A stretch of 64,000 nucleotides of DNA, from NCBI RefSeq assembly GCF_902506555.1, contig NZ_LR732707.1, positions 210,001 to 274,000 on the forward strand, given 5' to 3'. This document shows, one piece after another, positions 17,803 to 20,759 of this stretch. The position numbers were made by a program, and so were the translations under genes. The notes below the pieces were generated by a model. That model saw only the letters and a list, made by a program, of their open reading frames with translations. It did not search any database and was not told the DNA's origin. How positions within the stretch are numbered: the stretch's first letter is position 1; each line of letters begins with the position of its first letter. Source of the stretch: Sphingorhabdus sp. 109 (lineage in GTDB: Bacteria > Pseudomonadota > Alphaproteobacteria > Sphingomonadales > Sphingomonadaceae).

Positions 17803-18876
17803 CTACCGGCGGGTGACGGTTCCGTCCGAGACTTCGAAATGCAGCGCATCATCCGGAACATCTCCGAACAGTTCAGGTTCCGTACCCGTAAGCCACACTT
17901 GACCGCCCCGTTCTGCAAGCTTGTCGAACAGGGCTGCCCTGCGCTGCGGATCGAGATGGGCAGCGACTTCATCGAGCAGCAATATTGGTCGCTTGTCGCG
18001 CCGCTCAGCGACCAGATCAGCATGGGCGAGAATGATCGAGAAGAGCAACGCCTTCTGTTCCCCGGTCGAGCATTTTTCGGCTGGCTGCTGTTTCGCGGCG
18101 TGTAACACTTTGAGGTCAGCCCTGTGGGGGCCTCTTGTCGTTCGTCCCGCTGCCCGGTCGACACCGCGGTTTTGTTGCAACATCTGGAGAAGTTGCTGTT
18201 CGCTGCGCATGTCCCCATCCGCCAGCTCCATTGCCGGCGTGGCAAATATTGTGCTTTCCGATTGCTGTAACCGTTGGTTCAGCGCAGAAACCATACGCTC
18301 TCTGGCTTCTGCGACAAATCCGCCGAATTGCGCCAACTGGGTATCCAGGCCGTCGATCCAGCTTTGATCCGCCGGATGGCTGTCTGCGAGAAGTCTGTTG
18401 CGTTCACGTCGCGCGGCTTCGTAGCGGGCGCAATTTCGAGCATGGGCCGGCTCCAACGCTGTGACCAGCCGGTCAAGGAAATTCCGGCGTCCGGATGCGC
18501 CCTCTGTAAAAAGCCGGTCCATCGCGGGCGTCAGCCACAAAATCGACAACCATTCAGCCAGGTCATTGGTCGGGACGGACGCTTCGTTAATCCGGGTTTT
18601 GCGTCGTTCGGGCGCTTCGATACTAGTGCCGCTTCCCAGATGCACATCATCATGTTGTGCGGCGACAGCGAAATCGCCAGGGCCGTTCTGGTGCGCGATG
18701 TCCCGGAGCGGTGCCCGTCTGAGACCGCGACCGGGTGCAAGCAGTGAGACCGCTTCCAGAATATTGGTTTTTCCCGCACCGTTGGCACCACTGAACACCA
18801 TAAAGCCGGGCGCGGCTTCGAGACGTAATTCCCGATAGTTGCGGAAATTGTGCAGAGTGAGTTGTGACAGGGTCAT
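17803..18876 (-). CDS. recF: DNA replication and repair protein RecF
   Basis: 357 residues from the ATG at 18876; a GTG five codons upstream (18891) is the alternative. RecF is an SMC-like ATPase that loads RecA at gaps through RecOR. Motifs: LHNFRNYREL at the N-terminus, Walker A GANGAGKTN (residues 30-38), the signature-like STGEQKALL, and Walker B ILLLDEVAAHLD. Length is typical. It is not next to dnaA/dnaN/gyrB as in many bacteria, which is common in alphaproteobacteria. It heads a probable recF-CHAP-mobA unit. Confidence 0.95.
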   Translation of the reverse strand: MTLSQLTLHNFRNYRELRLEAAPGFMVFSGANGAGKTNILEAVSLLAPGRGLRRAPLRDIAHQNGPGDFAVAAQHDDVHLGSGTSIEAPERRKTRINEASVPTNDLAEWLSILWLTPAMDRLFTEGASGRRNFLDRLVTALEPAHARNCARYEAARRERNRLLADSHPADQSWIDGLDTQLAQFGGFVAEARERMVSALNQRLQQSESTIFATPAMELADGDMRSEQQLLQMLQQNRGVDRAAGRTTRGPHRADLKVLHAAKQQPAEKCSTGEQKALLFSIILAHADLVAERRDKRPILLLDEVAAHLDPQRRAALFDKLAERGGQVWLTGTEPELFGDVPDDALHFEVSDGTVTRR

Positions 18877-18953
18877 GACTGAACTGGTCACTAGCTTTCG
18901 GGCCCGATGAATTGAAGCAAATTCGGATGACAGATCTGTTCAGACCGCTTCCC

Positions 18954-18970
18954 GTTGGCGCCCTGCCAAC
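18954..18970. promoter_or_regulatory. Inverted repeat, possible upstream activator site
   Basis: GTTGGC-GCCCT-GCCAAC, a perfect 6+6 inverted repeat centred about 103 bases before the GG of the sigma-54-type promoter at 19063. That is the usual distance for a bacterial enhancer-binding protein such as PspF or NtrC. Binding is not shown by sequence alone. Confidence 0.4.
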
Positions 18971-19062
18971 AGTTGGTGAAAAAAACCAATCATCGGTGGT
19001 GCGTAATTTCATATGCGGCGACGAACTCGATTAAAATACTGAAAAGGCTACATATACTCAAA

Positions 19063-19080
19063 TTGGCACGCGTCCTGCAA
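19063..19080 (+). promoter_or_regulatory. Sigma-54 (-24/-12) promoter
   Basis: TTGGCACG-CGTC-CTGCAA matches the consensus TGGCACG-N4-TTGCA with a single change (T to C), and keeps the invariant GG (19065-19066) and GC (19077-19078) exactly ten bases apart. The start of transcription would be near 19090, about 47 bases before the first tiny gene and its Shine-Dalgarno. In enterobacteria the phage-shock operon containing pspC is sigma-54 dependent, and here a pspC gene is the third gene downstream. Confidence 0.7.
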
Positions 19081-19136
19081 AGTCTCAGACATCTTCGCAA
19101 TGACGCGAAAAAAATTCAAATTGAAAGGAAACCAAT

Positions 19137-19256
19137 ATGTTCTCGAATGTCTCAAGTAACCTGTCTGCTGCCATAGCTGCGATTTTCTCTGCAGCCCTGT
19201 TGGTTAGCGCGAGCGTTGGACCAGCCTTCAGCAACGCTGCTTCGGTCGTCGCTTAA
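19137..19256 (+). CDS. Tiny hydrophobic protein, paralogue 1
   Basis: 39 residues starting MFSNVSSNLSAAIAAIFS and ending in NAASVVA. AAAGGAAACC gives a Shine-Dalgarno 5-8 bases before the ATG. The whole chain is Ala/Ser/Val-rich with one hydrophobic stretch (about residues 11-27), so it is either a single membrane helix or an uncleaved signal-like peptide. It aligns over its full length with the next gene: the shared pattern is N..S.FSAA...AA..SAAL.V.AS..PA..NA.SVV. No known family is recognised. First gene behind the sigma-54-type promoter. Confidence 0.7.
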   Translation: MFSNVSSNLSAAIAAIFSAALLVSASVGPAFSNAASVVA

Positions 19257-19284
19257 CCCATTAAAATCCAGGAAAGCCAATCTC

Positions 19285-19404
19285 ATGATACTCAATCTCC
19301 AGAATTCATTTTCCGCCGCTTTTGCCGCAGCTGTGTCAGCAGCTCTGTTTGTCGGCGCCAGCATCTTGCCAGCCATCAACAATGCATCATCGGTGGTGAT
19401 CTGA
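19285..19404 (+). CDS. Tiny hydrophobic protein, paralogue 2
   Basis: 39 residues, MILNLQNSFSAAFAAAVS to NNASSVVI, the same length as the preceding gene and clearly similar to it. AGGAAA lies 9 bases before the ATG. The frame is open upstream to 19216, but the Shine-Dalgarno and the paralogue fix the start here. The TGA shares its A with the ATG of the PspC gene, so translation is probably coupled. The single hydrophobic helix suggests a membrane peptide that may act with PspC. Confidence 0.7.
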   Translation: MILNLQNSFSAAFAAAVSAALFVGASILPAINNASSVVI

Positions 19405-19667
19405 TGGCCGGAAAGAACAAAAGCTCAGACCCCGTTTCCGGTAGCTGGCCGGAGCCCGTCCCATCTCGCAAAGAAAGCAATCGACCCATGAAGAACAAAC
19501 TTAAACTCGACAAAGCCAATGGCAAGCTGATGGGCGTCTGCTCGGGCCTCGCTAACTGGAGCGGAATGGATGCCAACTTGTTGCGGATAATATTCGTACT
19601 TGCGACGATCTTCGGATTCGGTTCCGCGATTATCATCTATCTCGCGATTGGCCTGATCGTGGACTGA
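19404..19667 (+). CDS. pspC: PspC domain protein (phage shock protein C)
   Basis: 87 residues. The N-terminal 30 are polar (GKNKSSDPVSGSWPEP). The PspC domain follows: KLDKANGKLMGVCSGLANW, then MDANLLRIIFVLATIFG and a membrane helix to the C-terminus (IIIYLAIGLIVD). PspC is an inner-membrane sensor/effector of envelope stress that in enterobacteria releases PspA inhibition of PspF. An internal ATG at 19488 would give the short form typical of single-domain PspC. No pspA, pspB or pspF is in the window. A perfect 14-bp palindrome (TGCAGATATCTGCA) directly follows the stop. Confidence 0.88.
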   Translation: MAGKNKSSDPVSGSWPEPVPSRKESNRPMKNKLKLDKANGKLMGVCSGLANWSGMDANLLRIIFVLATIFGFGSAIIIYLAIGLIVD

Positions 19668-19753
19668 TGCAGATATCTGCAGTGCACCAAATGATATAAC
19701 ATGCGGAAAATACAGTCCAATATACATAGACCGCTCTGACTATTCCGTGTAAT

Positions 19754-19771
19754 CGAATATAAGAATATTCG
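19754..19771. promoter_or_regulatory. Candidate metal-responsive operator
   Basis: CGAATAT-AAGA-ATATTCG, a 7+7 inverted repeat located 23 bases before the CDF exporter start. AT-rich repeats of this type are bound by ArsR/SmtB-family zinc or cadmium repressors, so autoregulation by metal is plausible. No regulator gene is adjacent. Confidence 0.4.
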
Positions 19772-19793
19772 CATTGCAATAGTCGGAGCGCAG

Positions 19794-20759
19794 ATGTCCG
19801 CCGGTCACCATCATCACCACGGCCATTTTACCCATAGTCATCACGATCGCCAAGGCCCGCATGGCCACATGCCTGCAAATTTCAGCCGTGCCTTCGCGCT
19901 CGGTATCTCGCTTAATGTCATTTATATCATTGTTGAGGTCATATTCGGCCTTATGGCCGGGTCTATGGCACTGCTGGCGGATGCCGGTCATAATCTGTCA
20001 GATGTGCTAGGGCTGGCTGTCGCATGGGCCGGAGCGGAACTGACCAAGCGTCCGCCGAACAAACGATTTACCTACGGTTTCGGTGGATCCTCGATTCTCG
20101 CCGCCTTGCTCAATGGCCTGTTCTTGCTGGTGGCATGCGGTGCTATTGCATGGGAAGCGATTGAGCGGTTCAGCGCACCCAGTCCAATCGCTTCAACTAC
20201 TGTCATTATCGTCGCCTCGGTCGGCGTTCTCATTAATTTCGTCACCGCGATGCTTTTTGCCAGCGGGCAGAAGGATGACATTAATATTCGGGGCGCCTTC
20301 CTGCATATGATGGCCGATGCCGGCGTGTCTGCGGGCGTGGTAATTGGCGGTGTCGCGATTTATTTCAGCGGTTTGAACTGGATCGATCCGTTGATCAGCT
20401 TGTTGATCGTCGCATTGATTTTCTGGAGTACCTGGGGGCTGCTGTCGGAGGCTGTGCGTATGTCACTGGCGGGTGTACCGCGCGATATCGACGTCGAGGA
20501 TGTAATGGCATTTTTGGAAAGCCTGCCGGGTGTAGAGACGGTTCATGATCTCCATATTTGGCCAATGAGTACAAGCGAGACAGCCATGACCGCCCATCTC
20601 GTGCTGCCGGGCGGACATCCCGGCAGAGGTTTTCTGGCCGATGTCCAGCAGCAACTGAGAAAACGCTTCTCCATTCATCATATTACCATCCAGATCGAGC
20701 TTGAAGATGAGGAAGCCGATATGTGCAGGACCGATTGTAGCGGAGAAAAACTGCGGTGA
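19794..20759 (+). CDS. Cation diffusion facilitator metal exporter (CzcD/ZitB-like)
   Basis: 321 residues. The histidine-rich N-terminus (GHHHHHGHFTHSHH) is typical of zinc exporters. Six membrane helices follow. The transport site is visible as D63, H66 and D70 in LLADAGHNLSD (helix 2) and H171, D175 in LHMMADAG (helix 5), the HxxxD pattern of Zn/Cd/Co exporters. The cytoplasmic ferredoxin-like C-terminal domain carries VHDLHIWPMS. It exports divalent metal, most likely zinc, by proton antiport from the cytoplasm. The upstream inverted repeat suggests metal control. Confidence 0.93.
   Translation: MSAGHHHHHGHFTHSHHDRQGPHGHMPANFSRAFALGISLNVIYIIVEVIFGLMAGSMALLADAGHNLSDVLGLAVAWAGAELTKRPPNKRFTYGFGGSSILAALLNGLFLLVACGAIAWEAIERFSAPSPIASTTVIIVASVGVLINFVTAMLFASGQKDDINIRGAFLHMMADAGVSAGVVIGGVAIYFSGLNWIDPLISLLIVALIFWSTWGLLSEAVRMSLAGVPRDIDVEDVMAFLESLPGVETVHDLHIWPMSTSETAMTAHLVLPGGHPGRGFLADVQQQLRKRFSIHHITIQIELEDEEADMCRTDCSGEKLR

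What the first reader, a model, noticed from the sequence alone, without database searches (positions are those of the whole stretch)
19063..19667. Sigma-54-type promoter driving two 39-residue proteins and PspC
TTGGCACG-N4-CTGCA matches the -24/-12 consensus with one change and exact GG-N10-GC spacing. It sits 47 bases before an operon of two tiny membrane peptides and pspC. In enterobacteria sigma-54 and PspF control the phage-shock response. Here pspC appears without pspA or pspB, in the company of peptides I do not recognise. This could be a reduced or altered envelope-stress module, and the tiny proteins would escape normal gene calling.
Basis: partly seen in the sequence, partly recalled or inferred. 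Interest (0 to 1): 0.75.

Follow-up and report, generated by a model that had tools for sequence, protein, structure and literature searches.

The report
Tiny membrane peptides under PspF control
A stress switch that bacteria use to protect a damaged inner membrane appears, in this bacterium and much of its family, to turn on unannotated membrane peptides of about 40 residues alongside a short PspC protein, which would add new parts to a well-studied stress response.

Summary
In detail: a sigma-54 promoter (19063-19079) precedes two homologous 39-residue peptides and an 87-residue PspC-domain protein. A matrix built only from pspF-pspA intergenic DNA of other genera picks, among 127,926 window positions, a paired CCAANNNTTGG element at 18966-18996, 97 bp before the promoter, as at pspA. 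The genome also has rpoN, pspF and a full pspFABC locus, so this is not a reduced psp system but an unlinked satellite. The whole promoter occurs in 81 of 99 Sphingomonadaceae genomes; of 34 unlinked copies examined, 32 start with peptides of 28-53 residues and 30 have a PspC-domain ORF. The own genome has two further peptide-pair loci and a related leader ORF before pspA. Ten of ten near-complete genomes without pspF lack PspC but keep rpoN. The peptides evolve as proteins and match no Pfam or NCBIfam model over its cutoff. Best reading: PspF, perhaps with IHF, switches on single-helix inner-membrane peptides plus a short PspC under membrane stress. The regulation is well supported in silico; the peptides' function is inferred.

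The parts
18966..18976 (.). UAS half 1, CCAACAGTTGG, perfect dyad
   Evidence: Top matrix hit in the window; matrix rows are pspA promoters of other genera; at -96 to -98 in 27 of 27 relatives
18986..18996 (.). UAS half 2, CCAATCATCGG, exactly 20 bp from half 1
   Evidence: 20-bp spacing is best in 22 of 26 pspF-pspA regions
19032..19044 (+). Possible IHF site (TAAAATACTGAAA) between UAS and promoter
   Evidence: Best IHF-like match falls at this offset in 18 of 28 loci, window included; mean best match 8.07 of 9 against 7.12 shuffled; IHF consensus recalled
19063..19079 (+). Sigma-54 -24/-12 promoter TTGGCACGCGTCCTGCA
19094..19109 (+). Possible 5' leader stem-loop TTCGC-AATGAC-GCGAA
   Evidence: Covaries in 24 loci that I picked by eye out of 83; without picking, the window's own stem is not above shuffles (0.38) and only 1 of 28 module and 9 of 34 unlinked loci are. 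Weak
19137..19256 (+). Tiny membrane peptide 1, 39 aa
   Evidence: one helix predicted, residues 2-38, mean pLDDT 77
19285..19404 (+). Tiny membrane peptide 2, 39 aa, homologous to peptide 1 (54% identity)
19404..19667 (+). Short PspC-domain protein, 87 aa, start overlapping the stop of peptide 2
   Evidence: PF04024 56.5 bits, cutoff 25; TIGR02978 52.6 bits, below its cutoff of 104

Best explanation
The element is an unlinked member of the PspF-sigma54 (phage-shock) regulon. On inner-membrane stress PspF, released from PspA, binds the two dyads at 18966-18996, IHF probably bends the DNA, and sigma54 polymerase starts near 19090. The message encodes two single-helix inner-membrane peptides and a PspC core that lacks the C-terminal tail of the operon PspC. 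The peptides insert in the inner membrane and act there as effectors or modulators, alone (at the peptide-only loci) or with the short PspC. SHOWN in silico: promoter, UAS pair, its match to the pspA promoter, wide conservation in the family, co-loss with pspF, protein-level selection on the peptides. INFERRED: PspF binding, IHF role, start site, stress induction, membrane insertion, and the effector role.
For: Own genome: rpoN; one of 7 PspF-like places passes the PspF cutoff, with pspA, pspB, pspC beside it. Matrix from 23 pspF-pspA regions, own and same-genus left out: the top two of 127,926 window positions are this element read on either strand, 23.4 and 14.1, next 6.7. Best site at -96 to -98 in 27 of 27 relatives, rank 1 or 2 in each locus. 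Of 21 sigma54-like sites in the genome, four have the UAS at -97/-98; all four, and 0 of the other 17, are followed by a hydrophobic tiny ORF. Promoter model: 81 of 99 family genomes. Unlinked copies: peptide in 32 of 34 (two of these by hand), PspC-domain ORF in 30 of 34. 0 of 7 genomes without pspF have the promoter, against 81 of 92 with it. The matrix's best hit in 3.5 kb of E. coli K-12 is in the pspF-pspA intergenic region, and the promoter model hits it weakly (13.3 bits, E 0.0022).
Against: No transcript, 5' end or protein data. 11 of 92 pspF-bearing genomes gave no promoter hit (strict filters may lose some). The promoter model holds four own-genome rows out of 32, so its own-genome hits are not independent. 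The dyad used to register the matrix rows was chosen after I had seen both sets of sequences. A fifth own-genome site (C2:1878036) scores 10.2 at -88 without a peptide. L102 and L107 are peptide copies without a recognised promoter. One genome outside the 99 (G135, 77% complete) has a promoter hit at its psp operon but no pspF in the assembly. The IHF-like site is only slightly above shuffles, and the leader stem-loop fails an unselected test in the window.
Confidence: 0.82

Rival explanations
1. The promoter is sigma54-dependent but its activator is another enhancer-binding protein, not PspF.
For: The genome has six further places that match the PspF model below its cutoff; binding was not tested.
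Against: The same UAS pair, spacing and offset sit between pspF and pspA. All 7 pspF-lacking genomes among 99 also lack the promoter, while 6 of those 7 still have rpoN.
Confidence: 0.07
2. The tiny ORFs are regulatory leader ORFs: their translation controls pspC or pspA, and the peptide itself does nothing.
For: They are first in the message, and peptide 2 is coupled to pspC by a stop-start overlap. A leader ORF also precedes pspA in 20 of 26 regions.
Against: In-frame purifying selection, 1-3 tandem copies, and a locus (L100) where the pair is followed within about 50 bp by a convergent ORF and no pspC.
Confidence: 0.12
3. The peptides are membrane-damaging (holin- or type-I-toxin-like), with PspC as a protective partner.
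For: Small hydrophobic helices; a weak holin_5 match for peptide 2, 13.4 bits against a cutoff of 100, E 0.071.
Against: Weak match only; no Rfam match on either strand of 18800-19900, though Rfam would miss a new antisense RNA; control by the membrane-stress regulator would be self-defeating; some loci carry peptides without PspC.
Confidence: 0.06
4. Reduced psp system that replaces pspA and pspB.
For: No pspA or pspB beside this pspC.
Against: pspF, pspA, pspB and pspC together elsewhere in the same genome; 58 of 99 family genomes have two or more promoter hits (my count).
Confidence: 0.01

Closest known systems
PspG of E. coli and Yersinia (unlinked PspF-sigma54 target)
   Same: A psp gene away from the operon and driven by PspF; [quoted passage not shown] coli (PMC9239133, passages). 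That it is a small inner-membrane protein is recalled
   Different: Here there are 28-53 aa peptides, often in tandem, mostly followed by a PspC-domain ORF, at one to three unlinked loci in most genomes with a hit; neither window peptide matched any Pfam model
pspABC(DE) operon
   Same: Same promoter type and paired UAS; PspF control helped by IHF in E. coli (PMC3709507, passages); PspC domain
   Different: No pspA/pspB here; PspC is 87 aa, 31% identical over 59 aa to the 127-aa operon PspC and without its tail
Variant pspFABC operons and PspA-free PspC contexts (PMC11237479, passages)
   Same: PspC outside pspA operons and variation of pspFABC are reported there
   Different: The passages seen describe no tiny peptides and no unlinked PspF promoters; the paper's main text has no word beginning 'sphingomon'
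Stress-linked small membrane proteins such as YohP and MgrB (search listing)
   Same: Membrane proteins under 50 aa linked to stress
   Different: No sequence relation tested; PhoP/PhoQ for MgrB, regulator of YohP not looked up

Membership tests
PspF-sigma54 regulon | -24/-12 promoter with GG-N10-GC | tested here: met
PspF-sigma54 regulon | PspF-type UAS pair at the usual offset | tested here: met
   also finds the E. coli region
PspF-sigma54 regulon | rpoN and pspF in the genome, and co-occurrence across genomes | tested here: met
PspF-sigma54 regulon | PspF binding and PspF-dependent stress induction | not testable with these tools
   Needs footprinting and deletion strains
PspC domain family (PF04024) | Score above gathering cutoff | tested here: met
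   56.5 bits against 25
Envelope-stress PspC (TIGR02978 equivalog) | Score above curated cutoff, full length with tail | tested here: not met
   52.6 bits against 104; residues 32-87 only
PspG | Match to a PspG family model | tested here: not met
   No Pfam match up to E 10 for either window peptide; no PspG among the NCBIfam matches
PspD | Match to a PspD family model | tested here: not met
   No PspD match for the window peptides nor for six leader or satellite peptides in Pfam and five in NCBIfam
This tiny-peptide family | Related to the pspA-operon leader peptides | tested here: met
   Profile-profile probability 97.1, E 7.7e-11, with nine leaders that I picked; both are short hydrophobic helices, so composition may add to the score

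The most novel reading that the evidence does not exclude
In Sphingomonadaceae nearly every PspF promoter, the pspA operon mostly included, opens with a tiny membrane peptide. These peptides would be a previously unseen core class of Psp effectors or signal partners, working directly in the damaged inner membrane with a short PspC, and not accessories of PspA.
Probability: 0.4. Interest if true: 0.8.

Novelty: new variant of a known kind. Interest (0 to 1): 0.66.

Why it matters
In E. coli only the psp operon and pspG are described as PspF targets (PMC9239133, passages). Here much of a bacterial family seems to have a second, conserved PspF target made of peptides that the domain libraries I searched do not contain. 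That gives a defined gene set, a defined promoter and natural knock-out lineages (pspF and PspC lost, rpoN kept) with which to ask what Psp effectors do to a leaking membrane.

Tried and rejected
Reduced psp system: rejected, full operon present. Known families for the peptides: nothing over a cutoff. Pfam gave no match for the window peptides and one weak Phage_coatGP8 match (E 0.094, below cutoff) for a leader; NCBIfam gave weak matches below cutoff, best E 0.0071 to ATP synthase subunit C for a leader. Leader stem-loop: I first took it as strong because all five pairs covary in 24 loci, but I had picked those 24 of 83 by eye; an unselected test shows it in 9 of 34 unlinked, 1 of 28 module and 0 of 6 pspA leaders at 0.05, so I keep it only as possible. 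Rfam: no match. 'PspB duplicates' after pspC: I read four small ORFs as PspB-like by eye; none matches PspB. Alphaproteobacteria: the peptide profile hit 1 of 385 class genomes, the own one; at least four same-family genomes in that sample were missed, two of which (G041, G014) do carry peptides, so the profile is too narrow to exclude distant members. The promoter model hit 5 of 190, two of them outside the family as weak partial matches, not followed up. Zymomonas: papers report the gene between pspF and pspA (ZMO1062) as induced with pspA in xylose (PMC8645129, passages) and list it with pspA among genes changed by temperature (PMC8237431, passages), and psp genes up in ethanol (PMC3495753, passages). 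I first took ZMO1062 for the leader peptide, but in one small-genome genus of my set that place holds a protein of 170-174 aa, so I do not use it as expression evidence. AlphaFold gave a plain helix; I ran no fold search, as one helix would match anything. Literature: ten searches; none of the listings shown names a PspF regulon or these peptides in sphingomonads (lists were capped at 10-20 where many papers matched). Of eight papers I saw passages, of the rest only listings. Subscription journals and preprints are not in the library.

Full report
1. What is there. The window (C2:210001-274000 of a 3.62-Mb genome) holds at 19063-19079 TTGGCACGCGTCCTGCA, a sigma-54 promoter with GG-N10-GC. Then come, on the same strand, two 39-codon ORFs and an 87-codon ORF with a PspC domain (PF04024, 56.5 bits). 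Peptide 2 and pspC overlap by TGATG. The two peptides are 54% identical to each other.

2. Real genes, conserved promoter. A scan of genome contigs with the PspC returned 27 related loci from sphingomonads. All 27 have the promoter, TGGCAYR-N5-TGCA. All 27 have at least one 39-codon peptide ORF: two in L013-L032 and L039, one in L033-L038, 48 in all; the filter asked for 39 codons, and longer in-frame upstream starts exist at several loci. Over 21 two-peptide loci, window included, pN/pS is 0.27 (peptide 1), 0.37 (peptide 2) and 0.06 (PspC domain); the two shifted frames of the peptides give 1.0 to 3.2. recF lies divergently upstream in 27 of 27; a cation-efflux gene follows in 21 of 27.

3. 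The regulator. The genome has rpoN. Seven places match the PspF model at E <= 0.001 and one passes its cutoff (484.9 against 443.55 bits). Divergent from it lie a sigma-54 promoter, a 58-codon leader ORF, pspA (PF04012, 132.3 bits), pspB (PF06667, 92 bits), pspC (127 aa; PF04024, 50.4 bits) and four more small ORFs that match no PspB model. So 'without pspA or pspB' is true only of the neighbourhood.

4. The upstream sites. In the pspF-pspA intergenic DNA of relatives and the own genome (30 loci looked at, 26 with a recognised promoter) the best pair of CCAANNNTTGG-like dyads is 20 bp apart in 22 of 26. I built a 38-bp matrix from 23 of these regions, leaving out the own genome and the two same-genus ones, and scanned the window on both strands: 127,926 positions. 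The two best are the two readings of one element, 18966 (+, 14.1) and 18996 (-, 23.4); the next scores 6.7. The matrix holds no satellite promoter, but the dyad used to register its rows was chosen after I had looked at both sets. The element lies 97 bp before the promoter; in the 27 relatives the best upstream site is at -96 to -98 and ranks 1 or 2 in its locus, with scores from 7.9 to 27.6. The same matrix's best hit in 3.5 kb of E. coli K-12 is in the pspF-pspA intergenic region (14.3); E. coli PspF binds two UASs at pspA, helped by IHF (PMC3709507, passages). An IHF-like match sits at one fixed offset in 18 of 28 loci, only slightly above shuffles in score (consensus recalled).

5. How large is the regulon in this genome? 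The pattern YTGGCAYN6TGCW occurs 21 times, against 10 for the backward control. Four have the UAS at -97/-98: the window, pspA, C2:1702231 and C2:2637332. A fifth, C2:1878036, scores 10.2 at -88, with no hydrophobic small ORF behind it and no ORF of 90 codons or more on that strand just after it. All four, and 0 of the other 17, have a hydrophobic 30-62 codon ORF with a ribosome-binding-type sequence 45-100 nt on; random window positions: 50 of 4000. The two extra loci are peptide pairs; with the window pair that makes six copies. At C2:2637332 the pair is followed within about 50 bp by a convergent ORF of 471 codons, so it stands alone. Nine pspA leader peptides that I picked are related to the satellite peptides by profile comparison (97.1, E 7.7e-11). 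Of 26 pspA regions with a promoter, 20 show a leader ORF of 45-66 codons, three a protein of 170-174 aa, L062 a 94-codon ORF, and L063 and L066 none that I recognised (my count).

6. The family. A sequence-only model of the whole UAS-to-promoter stretch (32 rows, four of them from the own genome) hits 81 of 99 Sphingomonadaceae genomes at E <= 1e-4: 47 twice, 23 once, 11 three or four times (my count). Where I compared places, one hit lies beside pspF and the other elsewhere. I fetched 40 of the listed hits, mostly from the top of the list, meant to be unlinked, not a random draw. Six proved to be pspA operons, all six with a leader ORF. Of the 34 unlinked ones the automatic filter found a peptide in 30, starting 47-80 nt after the promoter; two more were read by hand (L210, 39 aa; L192, 28-29 aa, from the sequence printed): 32 of 34. 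A PspC-domain ORF was found in 30 of 34 (in L215 only at +903). In 24 of these 30 a plausible start gives 59-78 aa; in L198, L202, L203, L207 and L209 no clear start was found, and L215 is longer. L184 and L191 have peptides only; L208 and L222 neither.

7. Loss with pspF. pspF (E <= 1e-120) is found in 185 of 199 family genomes. In the 99 genomes common to both searches the seven without pspF all lack the promoter; 81 of the other 92 have it (p 2e-6 if genomes were independent, which they are not). Of the 14 genomes without pspF, 13 keep rpoN and 12 lack PspC; all 10 that pass the completeness filter lack PspC and keep rpoN. The two exceptions, G135 and G022, are partial assemblies (77 and 67% complete) whose PspC stands in a psp operon; G135 also has a promoter hit there, and G022 is the one without rpoN. 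pspF is probably missing from these two by incompleteness.

8. The message. A stem-loop seemed to follow the promoter. In 24 loci that I picked by eye out of 83 its five pairs all change on both sides, 83% of cells pair, and the covariation score is 0.688 against 0.224 in shuffles. Without picking, the longest stem averages 5.8 against 4.9 shuffled in 28 module loci (1 of 28 at 0.05; window 0.38), 6.2 against 4.9 in 34 unlinked loci (9 of 34) and 4.8 against 5.0 in 6 pspA leaders (0 of 6). So some unlinked loci have a real stem; for the window it is only possible. No Rfam family matches.

9. The peptides. 195 proteins in the large protein collection match (E <= 1e-3; 120 seen). None of the 120 has a Pfam domain, and those with a descriptive name are called hypothetical or uncharacterized protein; named sources are Parasphingorhabdus, Sphingorhabdus, Blastomonas, Sphingomonas and a Pseudomonadota MAG. 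The shape is a short polar start, a helix rich in small residues, a near-invariant PA, and a short apolar end. AlphaFold predicts one helix, 2-38, mean pLDDT 77. They are not PspG or PspD by the libraries.

10. Verdict. The regulatory claim is strong without being experimental. The effector claim rests on position, conservation and shape. The kind of system is known (PspF regulon, with PspG as the nearest parallel); the gene content and its spread over a family are new to the literature I could search.

Noticed in passing
L003 80-1269 (-) = C2 about 872.5-873.7 kb: Four further small ORFs (84-109 aa) follow pspC in the psp operon. They look PspB-like by eye (membrane start, coiled-coil end) but match no PspB model, only weak coiled-coil models below cutoff.
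   Followed up: partly
L133 (C2:1878036): Sigma54-like site with a weak UAS, followed by GC-rich hairpins and no recognised ORF: possible sigma54-dependent small RNA.
   Followed up: partly
L099 2079-2109: 14-pair inverted repeat overlapping the end of the second peptide gene.
   Followed up: no
L105: Five peptide copies in two arrays, each with a promoter, in one genome.
   Followed up: partly
L192: Peptides of only 28-29 residues in three copies before a 59-residue PspC-domain ORF.
   Followed up: partly
L115, L116: A peroxiredoxin-like gene (named by eye) follows the short PspC.
   Followed up: no
L040, L041, L047: In one small-genome genus the leader place before pspA holds an exported-looking protein of 170-174 aa.
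   Followed up: no
L193, L196, L197, L201, L211: Long stems (9-11 pairs) in the leader just after the promoter, above shuffles.
   Followed up: partly
G249:C6:22284, G364:C1:3319377: Weak partial promoter-model hits outside the family.
   Followed up: no
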